Under the pieces are notes generated by a model. It was not told the DNA's origin and did no database searches. It saw only the letters and a program-made list of their open reading frames with translations. A stretch of 40,912 nucleotides of DNA from a virus, in IMG/VR virus record IMGVR_UViG_3300025168_000018, positions 1 to 40,912 of that record. One strand, 5' to 3'. Positions 164 through 21,115 of this stretch are shown piece by piece; positions within the stretch are counted from its first letter, which is position 1; the number at the start of each line of letters is the position of its first letter. The position numbers and the translations under genes were made by a program.

Positions 164-3100
164 ATGGCAAAAATACCACGTAGAAGAGACGCAGGTTTTG
201 GGGTTACGGATTATGTGCGGTATAAACCGTCTGCTCCACCCATGGCGCCTTTGGGTTTGGCTGATTATTCGTCAGTTACCGATGCTTTGGATAAGGGTGC
301 GAGATTTGCTGCTGATAGGCATAACGAAGAGCAGGATCTTGAGGCTCGAGCTTATACAGATAATTTTATAAATAGTGCTGATCTTTTATTAACTAGTAAT
401 CTGGATGAATTTGGTAGGTATGATTATCAATCTCTTGACGAGGCTGTGGAAAAAAGCAATCAGGAGTGGAAAAGATCGTTTTCTGAACTTTATGATGATG
501 AGGTAATTGCTAATATGCCTGCGCGGAGAGCGCAAGAATTTATGGAGAAAGTCCATTTATTCGAAACGAAGCATACTGCGGGTGTGCGCAAGCATAAGAC
601 AGAGGCTATTGTTGCCAATACTAAAGCTGTTCAAATTAGACAGAATGAAGGTTTCCTTGCCAATGTAAGGGATTTTAATTTCCCACTTGATCCTACTTTG
701 ACGAAGTTTGAGGATCATTGGGCTGCTCGTGGGGCTGCAGCTAGGGATGGCGGAAAATTAGAGAGTACTGCGCAAGTTCAGCAGGCTTATGTTAAAGCCT
801 TGAAGGAAATGGGTACAGCTATTTTTGAGCGTTACAATACTCTTGCTGTTGAAAAGGTAACGAAAGGCTTAATTAAAAGTAAGGAGGATTTTCAGTTTAG
901 CTGGCAACAGGATAATTCTATTGGTAAGTATGCTTCTTATCTTGATTTGATTAATGGGATTGAGCGTGGGGATTTTGCCAGGTATTTTTCCAATCCTTCT
1001 CCGCATGAGATGATTCGCAAGTTGAATAAGAGTGTGGAGGCTGCTTTAAAGTCGGCTACTACTTTTCGGAACGACCAGTTGACAAAGGATGCTTATGCGT
1101 ATAAGGATGAGCTTTTAGCGAAGGCTTTTAGAGGGGACTCGATTACTGAAGATGAGGTGGAGCGTGCGGCGGAGTTGTATCGTATTGCTGGTAAGACTTT
1201 ATCTCCTACAACGTGGAGTACTTTATTAAATATCCATACAAAGCCTACCCCGAGAGATGATGCGGTTTATAATGGGTTTATGCAGCTGTATTATGATGAG
1301 TTGAGAAAAAGCGAGGATGGTCATATTCCTAATCTTGGTGCGCTGCGTGAGAAGTTCGAGATATGGCAAACGGATAAGAATCCTATGAAGAGGGCGCTTC
1401 ATGGAAAACATGTGCAAAAAATACTAGAGCTTCTTAGGAAGGAGCAGTCTGGTCAAAATAAGGAAGTCAATAAGTCGGCGCAGGATGTTCTTAAGAGAAT
1501 TAATGATGAATTTGGTTTTGGTAAGTTTGAGAAAGGTCTTACGCTAGATTCGGGAGAATATGTTGCATGGAAAACATTAAACGATTCGTTGGGTTTTGAT
1601 ATATCTCAGTATGTAACTGAGTTTGTAAGATCGAGGTATAACGAAGCTAAAGCGGCTGGACAGTCTTTTAATCAATCCAAGGTTGCGCAGGAGGTGATGG
1701 ATCTTATTACCCAGGGAGTGAATAAGAGGGGCGTGTCTGCTGCTCATCTTAGAATCCCTGAAGATCAGTTGCGTGGGGCGTATACGAGGAAGACGGCTGA
1801 TATTCTGAATGGGACGAAAACGGCGACTTCTTATGATGATTTGCTTATTGAGTTAGCGAAGGTAAGGTTGAATAGGATTACTCGTATGCTAGGTAATGAT
1901 ACTTTGTCGATAGATGATGCTGTAACGCCGAATCGTTATGGTAACTGGGTTAAGTGGCTAAGAGAGCAGACTCCTGCTAGGCAAGAGAAAGCTCTTGGAA
2001 CAGTTGGGAAAACTAATTGGTGGCGTCAGCTCGAGTTTGCTCCTATAGGTACTAATATTAAGGATTTGCAAATGGACACAGGTTTTGATGCTGCTGCTGC
2101 AGGGCCGTATCAATACGGAGAGGGGTCAGCAGATGGAGAGAAGCCAGATGCGACTACTCAAGTGACAACTGACGATGGTGCTGGTTCACCGGCTTTGCCT
2201 GAAAAAGAGATGCCTCCTGAAGTGAAGAAAAAGACTGAGGAGCGTAAGGCAGAAATGGAGGCTGGTGCGGGAGTAGGTGAAGAAGAGAAGACGGATTATC
2301 CTTCTCCAGATTTATCTACTGAGGTTGAGTCTGGTAAGTTCTCGGCTTTAACGAACAAGGTGTTGGGTTATCAAGAAGGCACAAAAAAGGGGTTTCCTGG
2401 CAGGCGGATTTTAGCTAACGAACCAGATGTCGAAGGTAAGACTTCTGAGAGCTCAGAGAGGGCTTTTCATTTCCGACATACGAATGGTAAGTGGTATAGC
2501 TGGCCTACTATATTTAATGGTAAGGAGCTTTCGCCAGCCGAGGCTTATAAGTTGTTTGTAAAATATGGTGGTGTTGATCCAGAGTCGGGTACTGTATCGC
2601 AAGGTTTTGATACTGAGCAAGGTGTTCTTGATTATATGACAGAGAGATCGGAGCATTTATCTGATCATTTGCATCCTTGGAAGAAGGTTGAGAAACTTCG
2701 CAAAGAGGGAAGCCCTTATGAGGCTGTAGTGTCTGCTTTTTCTTCGCTATATGAAGGTTCTGATATTCAGAAAGCAAATTTAACCCTTAAGGCTGTTAGG
2801 GATGTGTTGTTAGATATTGTTAGTGTTGATCCCTCTAAAGGGTTATCTGCCGCTTGGTCTACTGTTAAAGGGTTGTATGACAAATATGACGGTAGTATAG
2901 ATAGGATGGTGGATGGTTTAGCTGGATATTTGCAGAAAAAATTAGAGTATAGGGAGCGTGGCGAGGGTGATTATGAGCCTGAAGGTTCTGAGGAGAAAGC
3001 GTTTGAAGAGGTGATCACGCAATTAGAGGCAGGAGCGGGTGGAGGAGAAGAGCCAGTTGAGGAACCTCCAAAGATTGAAGAGCCAACATTAGGTGGTGAA

Positions 3101-3763
3101 GAAGAGCCAGCGGTTTTTGATTCAGAGGGTCCTGAATTTGATTACGAGGGTGCTAGAGCGGCTGGGTTAACACCAGATGCGTCAGGTCATTGGCCATCTC
3201 GTGATCCAAAAACAGGACGACTTTTTAAAGGTCGTGGTCATATTTCATGGCATAAAACGGTTGCTGCTGAAGAAGAGTTGGGCAATACAATAATTAAAGG
3301 TGATGATGGGCGGTATTATTCGATTAATCCTGTGGATGCTCTGGTTAAGGATTTTCCAGAGTTGACAGGTATTAAGGATGCGTGGGATGGTGTTCCTGAT
3401 GAATTTAGGCCTGAGGTTAGCAAGGCTGTTGCGCGGTATGTCGAGGAGCATGGGGTAGTTGGAGAGGGTCAGGATATTATTGATATGATAAATAAAGTTA
3501 CCGCAGAAGGGACTACTTTACAGAATAAGGGGGTTTTAAAGAAAAAACCGTCAGATAAAAAGGGAATGTACCCGCCTCCAAAAGATCAAGGTGGGGAGAA
3601 TGTATTTGGGATTCGAAATACCCCTGATGAGATTGCAGCTTTTGCTGAAAAGTTTATACGAGCAAATCCTAATAATCCAGCGGCGGAATTTGAAAAAGTT
3701 ATTAAAGAAGTCGGGGAGTCTGATTTAGCAGATTCTATTCTTGACTATATACGGGGGAAATAA
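164..3763 (+). CDS. gp15-like internal virion (DNA ejection) protein
   Basis: A 1199-residue protein in the position of T7 gp15, between gp14-like and gp16-like genes. It is mostly alpha-helical and charged in the first 650 residues. A Glu/Lys-rich linker (about 660-720) is followed by a module at about 720-840 rich in Trp, Tyr and Gly (including WYSWPTIFNGKELSPAEAY). I recognise this as a small domain recurring in phage ejection proteins and virion lytic enzymes. A second recurrent module at about 1008-1050 has AAGLTPDASGHWPSRDP followed by a GHISWHK-like segment. Role by analogy: released into the periplasm or inner membrane at infection to build the DNA conduit. No catalytic motif was seen. 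The start ATG at 164 follows a GAGG ribosome site, and the stop overlaps the next ATG (TAATG). Confidence 0.75.
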   Translation: MAKIPRRRDAGFGVTDYVRYKPSAPPMAPLGLADYSSVTDALDKGARFAADRHNEEQDLEARAYTDNFINSADLLLTSNLDEFGRYDYQSLDEAVEKSNQEWKRSFSELYDDEVIANMPARRAQEFMEKVHLFETKHTAGVRKHKTEAIVANTKAVQIRQNEGFLANVRDFNFPLDPTLTKFEDHWAARGAAARDGGKLESTAQVQQAYVKALKEMGTAIFERYNTLAVEKVTKGLIKSKEDFQFSWQQDNSIGKYASYLDLINGIERGDFARYFSNPSPHEMIRKLNKSVEAALKSATTFRNDQLTKDAYAYKDELLAKAFRGDSITEDEVERAAELYRIAGKTLSPTTWSTLLNIHTKPTPRDDAVYNGFMQLYYDELRKSEDGHIPNLGALREKFEIWQTDKNPMKRALHGKHVQKILELLRKEQSGQNKEVNKSAQDVLKRINDEFGFGKFEKGLTLDSGEYVAWKTLNDSLGFDISQYVTEFVRSRYNEAKAAGQSFNQSKVAQEVMDLITQGVNKRGVSAAHLRIPEDQLRGAYTRKTADILNGTKTATSYDDLLIELAKVRLNRITRMLGNDTLSIDDAVTPNRYGNWVKWLREQTPARQEKALGTVGKTNWWRQLEFAPIGTNIKDLQMDTGFDAAAAGPYQYGEGSADGEKPDATTQVTTDDGAGSPALPEKEMPPEVKKKTEERKAEMEAGAGVGEEEKTDYPSPDLSTEVESGKFSALTNKVLGYQEGTKKGFPGRRILANEPDVEGKTSESSERAFHFRHTNGKWYSWPTIFNGKELSPAEAYKLFVKYGGVDPESGTVSQGFDTEQGVLDYMTERSEHLSDHLHPWKKVEKLRKEGSPYEAVVSAFSSLYEGSDIQKANLTLKAVRDVLLDIVSVDPSKGLSAAWSTVKGLYDKYDGSIDRMVDGLAGYLQKKLEYRERGEGDYEPEGSEEKAFEEVITQLEAGAGGGEEPVEEPPKIEEPTLGGEEEPAVFDSEGPEFDYEGARAAGLTPDASGHWPSRDPKTGRLFKGRGHISWHKTVAAEEELGNTIIKGDDGRYYSINPVDALVKDFPELTGIKDAWDGVPDEFRPEVSKAVARYVEEHGVVGEGQDIIDMINKVTAEGTTLQNKGVLKKKPSDKKGMYPPPKDQGGENVFGIRNTPDEIAAFAEKFIRANPNNPAAEFEKVIKEVGESDLADSILDYIRGK

Positions 3764-6700
3764 TGCCAGAAGAAGATTTTAGTCAATATTTAGCTTATGA
3801 TCCTTTTGCTCAGGGGTCTGAGGCTTCTGATGCCGATGGTCATGTATTAGATAATGCAGTGAATGAGAATATTGAAGCGACTCTTGCCTTTGAGCAGAAG
3901 ATTCCTCGAGAAGATTTTAGGCCTCCGGCTGAGGTGGCTGATTCTCCTGCAGCTATGATGCAGGATATTCCCTATAGTGGCGCACCTGAGCCTGAGGAAG
4001 ATTCTTTTACGGCTTTGTTGCGATCTCCTTGGGTGTCTCCTTTGGCTGGCGTTTATGATGCTGTGTTGAATACGGGTCGTTTTATTGGTGATGGTGTGGA
4101 TTGGTTGGGTCAGCATTCTGAGGTAGCTGAAGTTGCCGATTCTTTTTTAGATGGTTTACCAAATGCGCCTGAGTGGCCTGCTACTAAAGGTATGATTGGT
4201 AAGGGTGGGCGAGCTATTACCAGTTTTATTGCTGCGGCTTATCTGCCTGCTAAATATTTAAAAGCATATAATGCGATTGTTCGCGGTGGGGCTTCTGCTG
4301 GTGTTGCTGGCGCCACAGGATTTGATCATGACGCTCCTAATGCCGCCAATCTAATTCAGCAGATGGCATCTGGTAGCGAGAGAATGGAATCTATTTTTAA
4401 TTCGCTTCCTTCTGAATACCAAAATATTTTAAGAGCTCTACCTAATATGAACGATAAACATCCTTTATTCCTTCGTTTACAAAATGGTGGTGTTGAGGCG
4501 ATGTTTGGTGTTCCTTTTGATATGTTGCTGAGTGCTGCGCGTATCTTTAAAGCATCACGTGATGCAAAGAAGTTAGCTAAGGAAGATGCTACTGTCAGGG
4601 CTCAGGCTGCGAAAGCGAGAGGAGATTTTCCTATTCAGCCTATCGTTAAGGATGATCCTGATGTGATAAAAATGCGTGCTTTGTTGGATAATTTAGATAA
4701 AGCGGAGATTAATGGTAATCCTCAACAGATTAAACAGGCTCAGCAGAGGTTGGAAAAGTTTAAACAAACCAATCCTGAGGGAGCTAAGATTCTTGACGAT
4801 CCTAGTTTGTTGGGGAATTTAGGGAAAGGGACGTTAAAAAGTTGGGGTGTTCCTTCTTTAAAGCCTGGTTTTTTTAGAGATGTGGGCAAGGGGGGTATTT
4901 ATAAGGGTTCGGAACAGTTTGTGGATCCGGCTATATTGAAGAAAGCGTTAAAGGATAAGAACTTTGATTTAACCAAATGGATTTTACATCCCGCCAATAA
5001 TGCCTATAAGGCTCAGTTGATGGAAAATATTGGTGGTATGGTTGAGAAAATACAAAAAGAGGTTATGAAGAATGTGCCTGGTAGGCCAGGTCAAAGAAAG
5101 GCTGCAATAGAGGAGTTTACGGAGTTTGAGAAATCGCTGGCGTCTTTGGGGGATGGGACTGATACTTATATGACAAGCTCTTTATTGCGAAGTATGGAGT
5201 TTGGCCCCAGAACGGTTGATGATGCTTTAGTGCTGGATATTATTCGTTCTGCCCAGGGTATGCAATCTTGGCATTTAATGAAGAGAGCTCTTTCTGGTGA
5301 TGTGAGTGCTGCGCGTATGTTGCCGAAGCAGTTAGCTATTGGGGCTGAGATTGAGGCGATTGCTCGAGCGGCTAAATCTCCCTTAAATAAAGAGATGCTT
5401 AAGCAGATTGATCAGTCTGTTGTTTTGAAATATTCAGATGATCCTCTTGTAAGGGCTAGGTCTAAGGGTTTGCCTGAAGATGTTGGAGGTTTTGGTTTTG
5501 GTAAAAGTTTTAATGAAGATGCGACTAATATGATGATGCGTCATGCTGAGATGGTTCCTGAGTTTGATGGGCTGGATCTGGCGTTTCGTTTAAATATGCT
5601 TCGTACTCCTCAGGCTTATGAGGCGATGGCTCGCCAGATGAGTCGCCCTGGTATGTTTGATGCTTTCTTGGAGGGTTTTTATAATTCTATTCTTTCTCGT
5701 CCTATTACAATTATAGGTAACTTTGTCAGCTCCCATCTTTTTGCTGTTTATCAGATTCCTGTGCGTGCTATAGCCGGTATGGTTGGTGTCGTTGATCGTG
5801 CGATTGTAGGGCGGAGTGCAAATGATGTTGCGGTGGGTGAGTTTCTTGCAATGACTTATGGTTATGGGAGGGGCGCTGTGAATCAGTTTGTGCCTTTTAT
5901 GAAGAATCTCGGTTTAGTGGCGACGTTTAAGAAGCCTATTTCTGAGTCTGGGTTACAGAAGTTTGAGGCTTATTCGCGAGAGTCGTGGAATGCAGAGGGC
6001 TTGAAGCCGGCAATTTCGGCTTTAGATAAGATTGTGGATAATGCGACTCGTGGCGCTTTGAGCGTGAGGACTCCTGCGGAATTTTTAGCTAATGCTACTG
6101 GGCGTATTTTAAGGACGACTCAGAGTTTATTTGCTACTGGTGATGAATTGAATCGTGCTATTGCTTTTGATATGGGCAGACATGCTGAGGCTTATAGATA
6201 TGCGGCTAACTCTGGGAAGTCTCCCCTGGGGATGATGAAGGAAATGCGCAGGCATGTTGAGGATATTCCCCGCGTAAAAGGTAATGAATCATATGATATG
6301 AGTAATATGATTGCCTTTGTAGACGAGGTTGAAGCAAGCGCTGGCTTGAGGGATTTTGTTGATACTTATCCTGTTTTGCGTGTGGCCTTTCCGTTTGTTC
6401 GTTCTCAGGCGAGTATATTTTCTGCTTTTGTTAATAATTCTCCTTTGGCTGTTCTTTCTCCTCGGTTTCGAAAGGCTTTAAAAGCGGGTGGTGCTGAACG
6501 GCAATTAGCGTTATCTCGGTTGATGCTGGGTTCTGCCATGTCGTATGCGATGTATGAGGCATGGGGTGCTGGCAGATTGACCGGTAGCGGTACTGGAAAT
6601 CGCTCTCAGCTTTCTGCATTAAAGAAAATGGGGTGGCAACCGACCTCTGTGCTGGTGGATGGTGATAGTTTTTTTGCTACCATGTTTGATTTTGAGCGTT

Positions 6701-7899
6701 CCATGGAGGCGACTTTGGATCGTGTTATTGATGGAGATACAATAGATGTTAGAGATGCGGATGGAGAGGTTCATCGGATTCGCTTAAAGGGTTTGGATAC
6801 TGCTGAATTGGGTACTTTAGAAGGGTTCGAAGCAACAGATGTTTTACGCTCTGTTTTAGCTGATAATCCTGTATTGACTATTAAATGGTCTAAGATGGCT
6901 GCCAAGAAGAGTGGTAAGAATTGGGGGGATCGTTTGTTGGGTAAGGTTTATCTTGATGGCAAAGATATTGGGGAAACTATGATTGATAAGGGGGCTGGTC
7001 AATTTAGACCCGAACCTCCTAAATATGTTTCTTTGCGTGCTTTTGAACCTTTTGCGACCCATTTAGATGCGATAGTGAATACGCTTGATACTATTAATAG
7101 GATTGACGATTCTAAGGATCGTGATAGTCTATTTATGGCTCTTACGGAGAATGTGGCTGGCAATTTAATGAGCAAGCAATATACCAAGGGTTTTGCAACT
7201 CTTGTGGATATTCTACAGGGCAAGGGTGGAGATAGGTTGTTAAAGAGTTTTGTTCCTGCCATTCTTTCTGATGTGTCCAGGCATTTAGATCCTACGCATC
7301 GTGATTACAGGACTATTGATCCTACTTTAACTCCTGAGCATAAGGCTATGACTAGTTTAACAAATACGATAATGTCTAAAACTCCTTTAAAATCTGCTTT
7401 AATTCCGGATTATGATGGCATGGGTCATCTTGGAGTTAGACCTCCTTCTTGGGGAAGTAGTTTTTTTAATTTTATGCCTACTAAAGCTAAGGTATATAAT
7501 AAGGTCTGGCAGCAATTTGCGGTGAATCATTATTTTCCGAAAAAATTAGATCCAGTTGTGCATGGGGCGGATTTACAGCCTCATGAATATGCGGATTTAC
7601 AGAAGTTTTTAGGGACATTAACAATGGAAGGCAAGGATATTTATGCAATGATGGAGGCCCAGGTTGATGCTTTTGGCGAGGATGATCAAAAAGGGCCTGA
7701 TAGTTATCGCTATCATAAACTTGATGGTATACGTAAGAGTTATCAAGCTGCGGCTGAGAAGATGCTGTTGAACAAATATCCAGAGATAATCGAGAGGATT
7801 GAGGCGGTTGAGCTTGATAAAAATATTTCTGCTTACAATGATCAGCCTTTTGAACAAGAGAAATCGTTTCAGGATTTTTTACAGAGAGGACCTAACTAA
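3763..7899 (+). CDS. gp16-like internal virion protein with embedded staphylococcal-nuclease-like domain
   Basis: A 1378-residue protein in the position of T7 gp16, the largest ejection protein. Residues about 985-1085 form an SNase (thermonuclease) domain. VIDGDTI (988-994) supplies the metal-binding Asp pair. R1007 in IRLKGLDTAE matches SNase Arg35, D1012/T1013 match Asp40/Thr41, and E1015 matches catalytic Glu43. R1057 in DRLLGKVYLDGK matches Arg87. All key residues of the family are therefore present. I see no lytic transglycosylase motif such as T7 gp16 carries at its N terminus. Hydrophobic helices near 135-185 and 640-680 could insert into membrane. The nuclease fusion is unusual for this position. 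It could degrade host DNA or RNA, or act on the incoming genome, once delivered. The ATG overlaps the preceding stop. Confidence 0.8.
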   Translation: MPEEDFSQYLAYDPFAQGSEASDADGHVLDNAVNENIEATLAFEQKIPREDFRPPAEVADSPAAMMQDIPYSGAPEPEEDSFTALLRSPWVSPLAGVYDAVLNTGRFIGDGVDWLGQHSEVAEVADSFLDGLPNAPEWPATKGMIGKGGRAITSFIAAAYLPAKYLKAYNAIVRGGASAGVAGATGFDHDAPNAANLIQQMASGSERMESIFNSLPSEYQNILRALPNMNDKHPLFLRLQNGGVEAMFGVPFDMLLSAARIFKASRDAKKLAKEDATVRAQAAKARGDFPIQPIVKDDPDVIKMRALLDNLDKAEINGNPQQIKQAQQRLEKFKQTNPEGAKILDDPSLLGNLGKGTLKSWGVPSLKPGFFRDVGKGGIYKGSEQFVDPAILKKALKDKNFDLTKWILHPANNAYKAQLMENIGGMVEKIQKEVMKNVPGRPGQRKAAIEEFTEFEKSLASLGDGTDTYMTSSLLRSMEFGPRTVDDALVLDIIRSAQGMQSWHLMKRALSGDVSAARMLPKQLAIGAEIEAIARAAKSPLNKEMLKQIDQSVVLKYSDDPLVRARSKGLPEDVGGFGFGKSFNEDATNMMMRHAEMVPEFDGLDLAFRLNMLRTPQAYEAMARQMSRPGMFDAFLEGFYNSILSRPITIIGNFVSSHLFAVYQIPVRAIAGMVGVVDRAIVGRSANDVAVGEFLAMTYGYGRGAVNQFVPFMKNLGLVATFKKPISESGLQKFEAYSRESWNAEGLKPAISALDKIVDNATRGALSVRTPAEFLANATGRILRTTQSLFATGDELNRAIAFDMGRHAEAYRYAANSGKSPLGMMKEMRRHVEDIPRVKGNESYDMSNMIAFVDEVEASAGLRDFVDTYPVLRVAFPFVRSQASIFSAFVNNSPLAVLSPRFRKALKAGGAERQLALSRLMLGSAMSYAMYEAWGAGRLTGSGTGNRSQLSALKKMGWQPTSVLVDGDSFFATMFDFERSMEATLDRVIDGDTIDVRDADGEVHRIRLKGLDTAELGTLEGFEATDVLRSVLADNPVLTIKWSKMAAKKSGKNWGDRLLGKVYLDGKDIGETMIDKGAGQFRPEPPKYVSLRAFEPFATHLDAIVNTLDTINRIDDSKDRDSLFMALTENVAGNLMSKQYTKGFATLVDILQGKGGDRLLKSFVPAILSDVSRHLDPTHRDYRTIDPTLTPEHKAMTSLTNTIMSKTPLKSALIPDYDGMGHLGVRPPSWGSSFFNFMPTKAKVYNKVWQQFAVNHYFPKKLDPVVHGADLQPHEYADLQKFLGTLTMEGKDIYAMMEAQVDAFGEDDQKGPDSYRYHKLDGIRKSYQAAAEKMLLNKYPEIIERIEAVELDKNISAYNDQPFEQEKSFQDFLQRGPN

Positions 7900-9542
7900 T
7901 GACACAAACAGCTCTTAACGCTCGGGTTGAATATACTGGGAATAACAGCACGGTTGCGTTTGCTATGACTTTCCCTATTACCGCCGCGAGTGATGTTAGC
8001 GTATATGTTGACGGCGTGTTGAAGACAATTACTACTCATTATACCGTGGCAGTTACGTCTTATCCTGGTACTGGCACGATTACGTTTGGATCAGCGCCAG
8101 CATCTAGTACGGCTGTTTTGTTGGTGCAGAATGTTCCATTAACTCAGCCTGTTGATTATGTTGCTTTTGGAGCATTTACTGCAGCAACTAATGAGGGTGC
8201 CTTGGATAGAAACACGATGCACTCGATTAGGCGCGAGGATAAGCTAGATACTAAATTTGGTGTTACAGATACTATGAAGGTTTCTGATCGTCCTACTATG
8301 ACGATTGCTGATGTTGCGGCTGACAGGGCTAATAAGGTATTAGCTTTTGATGCGTCTGGTGATATATCGGCAACTCAAGAAATTGGAACACTTAAAGGGA
8401 ATTGGGCGGCATCTACTGCGTATGTTGTTCGAGATTTGGTCAAAGATACTTCCAATAATAATATTTATATTTGTATTGTAGCTCATACTTCATCAGGCGC
8501 ACAGCCCATTTCAAGTAACACAGATGTTGCTAAATGGACATTAATTGTTGATGCCGCGAGTGCGACTACAAGTGCGGCAGCAGCGGCGACCAGTGCAACC
8601 GCCAGTGCTACCAGTGCAACCGCGAGTGCGGCCAGCGCGACCACTGCTACGGCCCAGGCTGTTATTGCTACAGCAAAAGCTGTTTTAACAGCTTCGGATG
8701 CAACAGATACAGCTGCAGATTTAGTAGAGACAGCAGCGGACGTAGTTTTAGCGGAAGCTGCTAAGGTATCAGCGGAAGCTTCTGCTGGGGCATTAGCCTT
8801 TAAATACACATTTGATAATTCAACCTCAATGGCTGATCCTGGCAGTGCCGGAGAAATCCGTTTCAACCATGGGACGGTTGGAAGCGTTTCGGCTCTTGCT
8901 ATTAGGGCAACATCTGCTGATACGAGTAATCCAGACATTTCTCCATTCATTGCTTCCTGGGATGATGGAACAAACACCGCGCACGAAGGTTATATTACGA
9001 TTCGTAAATCTGGAACCCCATCGACTTACGTTGTATTTTCGCTAACGGGAAGCGTGGTCGATAACACGGCCTGGTTACAATTACCTGTAACTCATGTTTC
9101 CTCAAATGGATCGTGGTCTAACGCCGATACGATGTATATTTCATATGCTCGCTCTGGAAATATTGGGGCGACTGGCTCTACCGGCTCCACTGGCGCAACC
9201 GGATCTACAGGAGCCACAGGCCCAGCAGGTGATGTGGATGATGTCTTGACTACAAGAGGAGATGTAATATATAGAAACGCTTCTACAAGTGCAAGATTGG
9301 CTGCTGGTACATCAGGCTATTTTCTCAAAACTCTAGGTACTGGTGCTGATCCAGTATGGGCAGAAGTTACAGGTGGTGGCCCATCATTAGGAACTAACTC
9401 TGTAATACGCACAAACGCAAAAACGATTAGTGAAAACATAACTTTTTTAGGGTCAGAAAATGGCTCAAGTGTTGGCCCAATTACGGTGGCAGACACTTAT
9501 ACAGTAACGGTAGCGTCTGGTAGCACTTGGACAATAATTTAA
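7899..9542 (+). CDS. Tail fibre with gp17-like N terminus, Ala/Ser/Thr coiled coil and collagen-like stretch
   Basis: A 547-residue fibre. The first ~120 residues match the virion-binding N-terminal domain of T7 gp17-type fibres: a beta-rich start on a TALNARVEYTGN-like sequence, then a conserved RNTMHSIRREDKLD-like region that precedes the shaft. Residues ~220-300 are an Ala/Ser/Thr heptad-like segment, probably a trimeric coiled coil. Near 422-445 there are Gly-X-Y collagen-like triplets (GATGSTGSTGATGSTG). The C-terminal ~100 residues contain the SARLAAGTSGYFLKTLGTGADPVWAEV-type linker common in phage fibres. It sits directly after the ejection genes as in T7 and is followed by three smaller fibre-tip genes. 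Probable receptor-binding stalk. The start ATG overlaps the upstream stop. Confidence 0.85.
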   Translation: MTQTALNARVEYTGNNSTVAFAMTFPITAASDVSVYVDGVLKTITTHYTVAVTSYPGTGTITFGSAPASSTAVLLVQNVPLTQPVDYVAFGAFTAATNEGALDRNTMHSIRREDKLDTKFGVTDTMKVSDRPTMTIADVAADRANKVLAFDASGDISATQEIGTLKGNWAASTAYVVRDLVKDTSNNNIYICIVAHTSSGAQPISSNTDVAKWTLIVDAASATTSAAAAATSATASATSATASAASATTATAQAVIATAKAVLTASDATDTAADLVETAADVVLAEAAKVSAEASAGALAFKYTFDNSTSMADPGSAGEIRFNHGTVGSVSALAIRATSADTSNPDISPFIASWDDGTNTAHEGYITIRKSGTPSTYVVFSLTGSVVDNTAWLQLPVTHVSSNGSWSNADTMYISYARSGNIGATGSTGSTGATGSTGATGPAGDVDDVLTTRGDVIYRNASTSARLAAGTSGYFLKTLGTGADPVWAEVTGGGPSLGTNSVIRTNAKTISENITFLGSENGSSVGPITVADTYTVTVASGSTWTII

Positions 9543-19904: not shown

Positions 19905-20120
19905 CTATTTTTCCTCCTTTGGCATTATCATGATGTCTTCTTCTAGTTCTTGGGTTGCTACTCGGTTTAGTTCTTCTAGTTCTGAAGCGATTATTATTTC
20001 TTTAAAGTCTTTTGCTTCTTTTTTTGTGTCAAATTCTAGTGTTTCTCCTTCCTGGTCATGAACAAATGAGAGGTGTTTACAGTCTTCGTTTTCGCAGTTT
20101 CTAGCGATTACATATTTCAT
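19905..20120 (-). CDS. Small acidic hypothetical protein between amidoligase and amidotransferase
   Basis: A 71-residue protein, MKYVIARNCENEDCKHLSFV then an acidic helical tail ending MPKEEK. The two Cys (C-x4-C) could bind metal. Its ATG overlaps the amidoligase stop, and it ends directly before the amidotransferase start, so it is expressed with both. It could be a substrate or carrier of the ligase, but that is only inference from position. Confidence 0.55.
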   Translation of the reverse strand: MKYVIARNCENEDCKHLSFVHDQEGETLEFDTKKEAKDFKEIIIASELEELNRVATQELEEDIMIMPKEEK

Positions 20121-21115
20121 TAAATTTCTCCATTTTCGTCGTATACTTCGCTGAAGTTTTCTCCGTGTTGATGTTCTTTTGCGAAGCGTGTTGTTGACAT
20201 TATTGTTGTTGCTTTGGGTGGGTTTTCTGGTACGAGGTAGGCTTGGGATGGTTTAATAACATATTCTTTTAGGGGTATGTTTTTTCCGGTGAGTTGTAGT
20301 CCTGAACGCGTGATCCAGCCTTCACTGTCGAATAATTTACCTAAGAGTCCATTTCTGTAATCGCTTATTTGTTGGTATGTTGCTGTTTCTTCGTATACTT
20401 CTGATTCAGTTTCTACTGGGTTGAGTTCTGTTTCTTCTTCCCAACAATCTGTAAGGGTAGGTGCTTTGTCCAGGTAGCTTTCTACGATAGTTAAGGTTTG
20501 GAAGATGGCGCTTGTTGTTAGCCATGGATCTTCGAAGGCAGGGAGCATTCTAAATTCTACTGTTTTCCATAGTCCGTAGCAGTAGTTGATTTGTGTATAT
20601 CTGTCAGCATTTCTTCCTGTGTCATAGATTTGTTCTTGTGGTTTAAATGCCTTGTTGCAGTAGGTATTATTACCTTTAAATCTTTCCCAGAACTCGTGTC
20701 CATTGTCTATTTTGTTTTTTCGGGCCCATTTTCCCATATGTTTTAAGTAATATTCTTCGAAAGAGGGATCGGTTAGTTGGGTGTAAAGTTTTTGATTTTT
20801 TACTGATACATGTACGTGTGTTCCGCATGTTCTATTTACGATATCGGGGTGATTTCTGATTATCCATCCTTTTATATTTCTGATTTGAAGTGGTGGGCTT
20901 GCCACTTCTCCTTTATATGCTGCTTTATTGTCGGTGATGGTAACGGATCCATCGTATTTGAGGGCTTTAGGTGCTCTTGGTCGTACCATTTTTGCACCTA
21001 TAGTTCCCATAGTAGCAGGTGTGGATTCGACTTTATGCGAGGCCCATCCGCCTTCAAATTCGATTCCTACTGCGAGTATGTGGTTTTGTTTGGGTATTTT
21101 ATGCTTGGTTGGCAT
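20120..21115 (-). CDS. Amidoligase (COOH-NH2 ligase, glutamine-synthetase-like fold)
   Basis: A 331-residue protein with the ordered motifs of the amidoligase family: VGIEFEG (E19, E21), YDGSVTI (54-60), GEVASPPL (69-76), TCGTHVHVSV (96-105), YTQINYCYGLWKTVEFRM (173-190, Asn and the E-F-R motif). These residues bind ATP and metal in the GS/GCS-like fold. Such enzymes form peptide-like amide bonds. Phage versions are known next to class-II amidotransferases and are thought to modify peptides, perhaps at the cell surface. Substrate unknown here. GGAG precedes the ATG, and the start overlaps the previous gene by 17 bp. Confidence 0.75.
   Translation of the reverse strand: MPTKHKIPKQNHILAVGIEFEGGWASHKVESTPATMGTIGAKMVRPRAPKALKYDGSVTITDNKAAYKGEVASPPLQIRNIKGWIIRNHPDIVNRTCGTHVHVSVKNQKLYTQLTDPSFEEYYLKHMGKWARKNKIDNGHEFWERFKGNNTYCNKAFKPQEQIYDTGRNADRYTQINYCYGLWKTVEFRMLPAFEDPWLTTSAIFQTLTIVESYLDKAPTLTDCWEEETELNPVETESEVYEETATYQQISDYRNGLLGKLFDSEGWITRSGLQLTGKNIPLKEYVIKPSQAYLVPENPPKATTIMSTTRFAKEHQHGENFSEVYDENGEI

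What the first reader, a model, noticed from the sequence alone, without database searches (positions are those of the whole stretch)
6700..7020. Staphylococcal-nuclease domain inside a T7-gp16-like ejection protein
Seen: VIDGDTI, R1007, D1012, T1013, E1015 and R1057 align with SNase Asp19/Asp21, Arg35, Asp40, Thr41, Glu43 and Arg87 in order, with the downstream YLDGK strand. Known: T7 gp16 carries a transglycosylase instead and is injected before or with the genome. Inference: the phage delivers an active Ca-dependent nuclease into the cell with the first DNA. It might attack host DNA or RNA, destroy competing phages, or process the entering genome end. The phage must then protect its own DNA during ejection and packaging.
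Basis: partly seen in the sequence, partly recalled or inferred. Interest (0 to 1): 0.78.

Follow-up and report, generated by a model that had tools for sequence, protein, structure and literature searches.

The report
Nuclease domain inside phage ejection protein
A small lineage of marine short-tailed phages has spliced a staphylococcal-nuclease domain, with its catalytic residues intact in this genome, into a hairpin loop of the large protein it is expected to inject ahead of its DNA, so the virus probably delivers a DNA/RNA-cutting enzyme at the first moment of infection, although activity and target are untested.

Summary
ORF 3763-7899 (1378 aa) is a gp16-like internal virion protein (phrog_6651, gene order gp11-12-14-15-16-fibre), and residues 981-1080 (nt 6703-7002) are an SNase domain: phrog_452 E 8e-13, PDB nuclease E 2e-4, AlphaFold model matching SNase crystals at E 5e-8. 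Three more distinct relatives in IMG/VR carry the domain at the same site. About 75 other gp16-like homologues, including HTVC011P, HTVC119P, CRP-804 and MEP301, have an empty site: a 21-27 (or 44) aa beta-hairpin where this clade has 140 aa. The nuclease was therefore acquired once, as an in-frame insertion into a hairpin turn. Asp19/21, Arg35, Glu43 and Arg87 are kept in all four; Asp40 is Asp in two, Asn in one (also common in free-standing relatives), Tyr in one. With Asp40 kept (window vs L004), the domain changes more slowly than its host protein; where Asp40 is lost, faster. Best reading: an ejected, latent nuclease effector. Target and compartment are inferred only. Homology to T7 gp16 itself was not detectable. 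SNase on a virion protein has one published precedent (BtI1 baseplate hub), so this is a new variant of a known kind.

The parts
3763..7899 (+). gp16-like internal virion (ejection) protein, 1378 aa, carrying the SNase insert
   Evidence: phrog_6651 internal virion protein E 8e-27; position between gp15-like ORF and tail fibre; homologous to 'internal virion protein D' of HTVC011P, HTVC119P, CRP-804
6703..7002 (+). SNase domain, residues 981-1080
   Evidence: phrog_452 E 8e-13; PDB SNase E 2e-4; Foldseek to 3lx0 E 4.6e-8
6646..6657 (+). strand 1 of the host-protein hairpin (residues 962-965) that precedes the insert
   Evidence: AF2 strand E463-466 of model m843585efe19d = residues 962-965; aligned with hairpin GWQPYSIKVGD of homologues without insert
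7021..7032 (+). strand 2 of the hairpin (residues 1087-1090) that follows the insert
   Evidence: AF2 strand E588-591; aligned with xYYAYNRLDP of homologues without insert
6724..6738 (+). D990-G-D992-T-I994: equivalents of SNase Asp19/Asp21
6781..6783 (+). Arg1007 = SNase Arg35
   Evidence: invariant in 4 inserted and 27 free-standing SNases
6796..6807 (+). Asp1012-Thr1013-Ala-Glu1015 = SNase Asp40, Thr41, Glu43
   Evidence: Asp40: D,D,N,Y among the four inserted copies; Glu43 invariant
6931..6933 (+). Arg1057 = SNase Arg87
   Evidence: ungapped from YLDGK; invariant in 31 sequences
164..3763 (+). gp15-like ORF (1199 aa), directly upstream; no family match, assigned by position
   Evidence: 35% identical to its counterpart in L004, 24-27% in L003/L001
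39939..40406 (+). gp14-like internal virion protein
   Evidence: phrog_308 internal virion protein E 3e-8; phrog_4177 E 2e-15
7899..9542 (+). tail fibre gene (gp17-like N-terminus) directly downstream
   Evidence: phrog_1640 tail protein E 1e-18; Pfam Phage_T7_tail 7e-4, below its cut-off

Best explanation
An ancestor of this marine podovirus lineage acquired an SNase domain, inserted in frame into the turn of a surface beta-hairpin in the C-terminal half of its gp16-like ejection protein. The protein is packed inside the capsid and leaves ahead of or with the DNA. The SNase is carried as cargo: held latent in the virion, folded after passage through the portal and tail, and positioned at the inner end of the ejection channel, where it cuts host nucleic acid (nucleoid DNA and/or RNA) or competing DNA in the first minutes of infection. 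Shown: fold, catalytic set, insertion site, single origin, purifying selection. Inferred: virion location, latency, activity, compartment, target.
For: SNase family and fold. Ejection-protein identity: phrog_6651 and gene order. Four diverged members with the insert at the same site against an empty 21-27 or 44 aa hairpin in about 75 homologues. One origin: inserted copies form one group, support 98/98. Arg35, Glu43, Arg87 invariant in 4 inserted and 27 free-standing copies. Window vs L004: 13 of 100 SNase residues differ against 117 of 466 in the core (Fisher p 0.009), pN/pS 0.18. Homologous gp16-like proteins carry other enzyme domains: ART-PolyVal, RelA/SpoT, ddrB-ParB, RadC, matching the injected polyvalent-protein theme (PMC5512222). 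In T7, gp16-C is modelled in the cytoplasm and binds DNA, and gp16 refolds after ejection (PMC8954989).
Against: Asp40 is Asn in L001/L002 and Tyr (with Thr41 to Ala) in L003; in that pair the SNase changes faster than the core (19/98 vs 44/472, p 0.007), which looks like relaxed constraint. SNase needs about millimolar Ca (own knowledge), scarce in cytosol but present around the virion, the opposite of what a cytoplasmic effector wants. The domain is acidic (pI 4.9). No virion proteomics; T7 gp16 relationship not detected.
Confidence: 0.5

Rival explanations
1. The SNase domain no longer cuts; it is a DNA-binding or structural module that grips the genome in the core stack or in the channel, as an add-on to the DNA clamp proposed for gp16-C.
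For: Asp40 lost in 2 of 4 relatives; SNase evolves faster than the core in that pair; danger of a nuclease beside packed DNA; T7 gp16-C binds DNA and is proposed to clamp the entering genome (PMC8954989).
Against: Arg35, Glu43, Arg87 and Asp21 are kept in all four although silent sites are near saturation; non-catalytic SNase repeats such as those of Tudor-SN typically lose them (own knowledge). Domain is acidic, poor for a DNA grip.
Confidence: 0.2
2. The nuclease works outside or in the periplasm, where Ca is high: it clears DNA or RNA in the envelope, degrades competing phage DNA in transit, or degrades extracellular DNA around the cell.
For: Ca is plentiful in seawater and periplasm (own knowledge); gp16-N of T7 stays in the periplasm (PMC8954989); hub-borne SNase in BtI1 sits where T4 has its tail lysozyme (PMC2147016).
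Against: The insert lies in the C-terminal half, which in T7 is modelled as cytoplasmic; no clear topology signal was found.
Confidence: 0.15
3. The nuclease processes the phage's own DNA, for example trimming or releasing the genome end at the end of ejection or packaging.
For: The domain sits in the protein expected to contact the entering DNA (position and phrog_6651).
Against: SNase is not sequence specific (own knowledge); about 75 related phages manage without it.
Confidence: 0.08
4. Decaying passenger: a neutral insertion tolerated in a permissive hairpin, without current function.
For: The hairpin tolerates another insert (44 aa version in L129, L133, MEP301); L003 has lost Asp40 and Thr41.
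Against: pN/pS 0.18-0.31 in all pairs; slower than the host protein in window vs L004; frame and nearly all catalytic residues kept at 57-69% protein identity.
Confidence: 0.07

Closest known systems
BtI1 baseplate-hub homologue of phage 0305phi8-36 gp147, with N-terminal SNase domain (Hardies et al. 2007, PMC2147016)
   Same: SNase domain decorating a phage virion protein that meets the cell first; authors suspect transfer from a stand-alone gene and call its use obscure
   Different: Myovirus-like hub of a Bacillus element, N-terminal fusion, outside the capsid; here a podovirus internal protein with an internal insertion
Polyvalent proteins (Iyer et al. 2017, PMC5512222)
   Same: Large injected phage proteins carrying enzyme domains; relatives of this gp16-like core carry ART-PolyVal, ddrB-ParB, RadC, RelA/SpoT
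   Different: SNase is not mentioned in that paper, which reports ParB-like DNases not displaced by other DNases; the window protein matches no polyvalent Pfam domain
T7 gp16
   Same: Gene order (gp14, gp15, gp16, fibre), size (1318 vs 1378 aa), internal virion role
   Different: No detectable sequence or fold similarity; T7 has an N-terminal transglycosylase, none seen here
Stand-alone marine phage SNases (phrog_452; cyanophage 'endonuclease')
   Same: Same domain family and catalytic set
   Different: Free-standing genes, mostly 114-200 codons, not virion cargo
A0A6J5NQ80 and other long phage proteins with SNase folds in BFVD
   Same: Long phage proteins (965-1368 aa entries) containing an SNase fold, one called baseplate hub (A0A6J5M9K0)
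   Different: 15-20% identical to this domain; not the same family (inserted copies here are about 68-87% identical); their roles were not examined

Membership tests
SNase (thermonuclease) domain family | OB-fold SNase structure | tested here: met
   AF2 model vs PDB SNase, E 4.6e-8, probability 1.00
SNase (thermonuclease) domain family | Sequence family membership | tested here: met
   phrog_452 E 8e-13, phmmer to PDB SNase 2e-4; Pfam PF00565 not reached
SNase (thermonuclease) domain family | Catalytic Arg35, Glu43, Arg87 and Ca ligands Asp21, Asp40, Thr41 | tested here: met
   All present in the window and L004; Asp40 replaced in L001 (N) and L003 (Y)
SNase (thermonuclease) domain family | Ca-dependent nuclease activity | not testable with these tools
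   needs enzyme assay
Podovirus gp16-like internal virion protein | Sequence relation to annotated internal virion proteins | tested here: met
   phrog_6651 E 8e-27; HTVC119P 2e-5, CRP-804 5e-6, MEP301 9e-9
Podovirus gp16-like internal virion protein | Gene order tail tube A, B, gp14, gp15, gp16, fibre | tested here: met
   conserved in L004, L003, L001 as far as the contigs reach
Podovirus gp16-like internal virion protein | Presence in virion and ejection into the host | not testable with these tools
   needs proteomics and ejection assay
T7 gp16 (strict homology) | Sequence or fold similarity to T7 gp16 | tested here: not met
   hhalign probability <1%; the listed Foldseek matches of residues 500-1378 are SNase entries or unrelated proteins; model confidence moderate, so distant homology is not excluded
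T7 gp16 (strict homology) | N-terminal transglycosylase | tested here: not met
   no significant Pfam match in the protein
Polyvalent proteins | Several effector enzyme domains and LPDs in one injected polypeptide | tested here: not met
   only one enzyme domain recognised in the window protein; relatives L091 and L115 do carry polyvalent domains

The most novel reading that the evidence does not exclude
A pre-loaded, latent nuclease: the ejection machine carries a nuclease that is masked or unfolded in the Ca-rich virion and becomes active only after the protein threads through the tail and refolds at the host envelope, giving the phage nucleic-acid attack before any gene is expressed, with Ca or refolding as the switch that spares its own genome.
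Probability: 0.3. Interest if true: 0.75.

Novelty: new variant of a known kind. Interest (0 to 1): 0.52.

Why it matters
Host takeover by podoviruses is normally thought to wait for early gene expression; an ejected nuclease would act before that. The empty and filled versions of the same hairpin in related phages make a clean experimental pair (with and without the insert, or with Glu1015 changed), and the question of how a virion stores a nuclease next to its genome becomes testable. It also shows that a hairpin in the gp16-like core is a natural insertion site that takes up foreign domains.

Tried and rejected
Pfam SNase model: no hit, yet other lines are strong, so divergence and not absence. 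T7 gp16 homology by hhalign and Foldseek: none. phrog_8809 (2317 aa, matches residues 965-1079): its member phages could not be found; candidates MW202475, BI-TP1 and Baldr were checked and rejected. A0A6J5NQ80 looked like the same family by length (1342 aa) but at 20% identity is not. Further family members: two degenerate DNA patterns in IMG/VR gave only the known four contigs; 15 hits in GTDB genomes were chance (no gp16 or SNase). Mobile-element reading of the insert (intein, homing element) rejected: no such domain was recognised, and the insert has one origin and co-diverges with the host protein. Hydropathy gave no clear topology for the SNase. Invariance of VIDGDTID among free-standing copies is partly by construction (search pattern), so only Arg35, Glu43 and Arg87 were counted as independent evidence.

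Full report
Observation. ORF 3763-7899 (+, 1378 aa) is open and holds the motif string exactly as described. The domain spans residues 981-1080 (nt 6703-7002). It matches phrog_452 (endonuclease) at E 8e-13 and solved thermonucleases at E 2e-4 by single-sequence search, with D19, D21, R35, D40, T41, E43 and R87 all aligned. Pfam SNase does not score, which explains why automatic annotation could miss it. An AlphaFold2 model of residues 958-1100 (31 sequences, core pLDDT about 90) matches SNase crystals at E 4.6e-8 and probability 1.00.

The host protein. It matches phrog_6651 'internal virion protein' (E 8e-27) and, more weakly, internal virion protein D of HTVC119P, HTVC011P and CRP-804 and the internal virion protein of MEP301. 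Through HTVC011P these connect to the gp16-type core proteins of P-SSP7, Syn5 and others. The two ends of the window share a 102-base direct repeat, so it is probably a complete genome. Its gene order is terminase, portal, capsid, tail tube A and B, gp14-like, gp15-like, gp16-like, fibre, conserved in the relatives as far as their contigs reach. Direct homology to T7 gp16 was not detectable by profile comparison or by fold search of residues 500-1378. 'gp16-like' is thus a statement about position and a chain of marine relatives.

Insertion. Three further distinct sequences with the same architecture exist in IMG/VR: L004 (69% identical), L003 (58%) and L001/L002 (57%). All carry the SNase at the same site. 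About 75 other gp16-like homologues, four from cultured phages, lack it. Where they have GWQPYSIKVGDxYYAYNRLDP (21-27 aa, or 44 aa in one subgroup), this clade has about 140 aa. No SNase was found anywhere in their gp16. In the model of residues 500-1378 the strands 962-965 and 1087-1090 bracket the SNase strands. The SNase was therefore inserted in the turn of a beta-hairpin that also accepts another insert. The four inserted copies form one group against 27 free-standing phage SNases (support 98/98), so one acquisition is the simplest reading; the exact donor is unresolved.

Is it active? Arg35, Glu43, Arg87 and both Asp of DGD are present in 4/4 inserted copies and 27/27 free-standing ones; the DGD motif is partly by construction of the search, the other three are not. 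Asp40 is D, D, N, Y among the inserted copies; N also occurs in 6 of 27 free-standing ones, Y in none. Between window and L004 the SNase differs at 13 of 100 positions and the core at 117 of 466 (p 0.009). Between L003 and L001 it differs at 19 of 98 against 44 of 472 (p 0.007). So the domain is under strong constraint where the site is complete, and less so where Asp40 is gone. This is one contrast between two pairs, hence suggestive only.

How it probably works. In T7, gp16 refolds after leaving the head, its N-terminus lines the periplasmic tunnel and its C-terminal part is modelled in the cytoplasm, where it binds DNA (PMC8954989). By analogy the insert would end up at the inner end of the channel. 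Relatives of this core carry other effector domains (ART-PolyVal in L091; RelA/SpoT, ddrB-ParB and RadC in L115), which fits the injected polyvalent-protein theme (PMC5512222). The likeliest role is an ejected nuclease acting on host or rival nucleic acid. Two cautions, from general knowledge: SNase Ca demand is met in seawater and periplasm but not in normal cytosol, and the virion interior is Ca-accessible, so the domain must be latent or weak in the capsid. Neither point was testable here.

Novelty. The library searches for SNase with ejection or internal virion proteins returned no paper; subscription journals are largely missing from the library. The one precedent found is the SNase domain on the BtI1 hub protein, whose use its authors called obscure (PMC2147016). 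Predicted-structure search shows several other long phage proteins with SNase folds at 15-20% identity. I therefore rate it a new variant of a known kind: known domain, known theme of decorated virion proteins, new placement inside a podovirus ejection protein with a documented empty site.

Noticed in passing
L115:5072-11821 (+): 2250-aa protein ending in the same gp16-like core carries RelA/SpoT (E 1e-8), ddrB-ParB (E 7e-17) and RadC (E 8e-5) domains: a possible injected alarmone enzyme.
   Followed up: partly
L091:7718-11836 (+): gp16-like protein with an N-terminal stretch resembling ART-PolyVal (ADP-ribosyltransferase), below the Pfam cut-off.
   Followed up: no
L129, L133, L102, L098 and MEP301 (L085:8524-10281): A different, 44-residue version of the same hairpin in a subgroup of gp16-like proteins: the turn seems to be a natural insertion site.
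   Followed up: partly
L085:7185-10284 (MEP301 gp24 and gp23): The gp16-like protein of Methylophilales phage MEP301 is split over two overlapping ORFs that both match the gp16 profile.
   Followed up: no
window 164-3763: The gp15-like partner diverges far faster (24-35% identity) than gp16, gp14 and tail-tube genes (55-88%) in the same relatives.
   Followed up: no
window 7899-9542: Tail fibre with a CBM_5/12-like stretch (residues 168-202, E 7.5e-5, below cut-off) and a collagen-like stretch (residues 420-444).
   Followed up: no
window 20120-21115 (-): ORF with a weak amidoligase_2 match (E 4.5e-4, below cut-off).
   Followed up: no
L169:15422-22411 (Pelagibacter phage Baldr): 2329-aa protein in the gp16 position with no PHROG match and no match to the gp16-like or SNase profiles.
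   Followed up: partly
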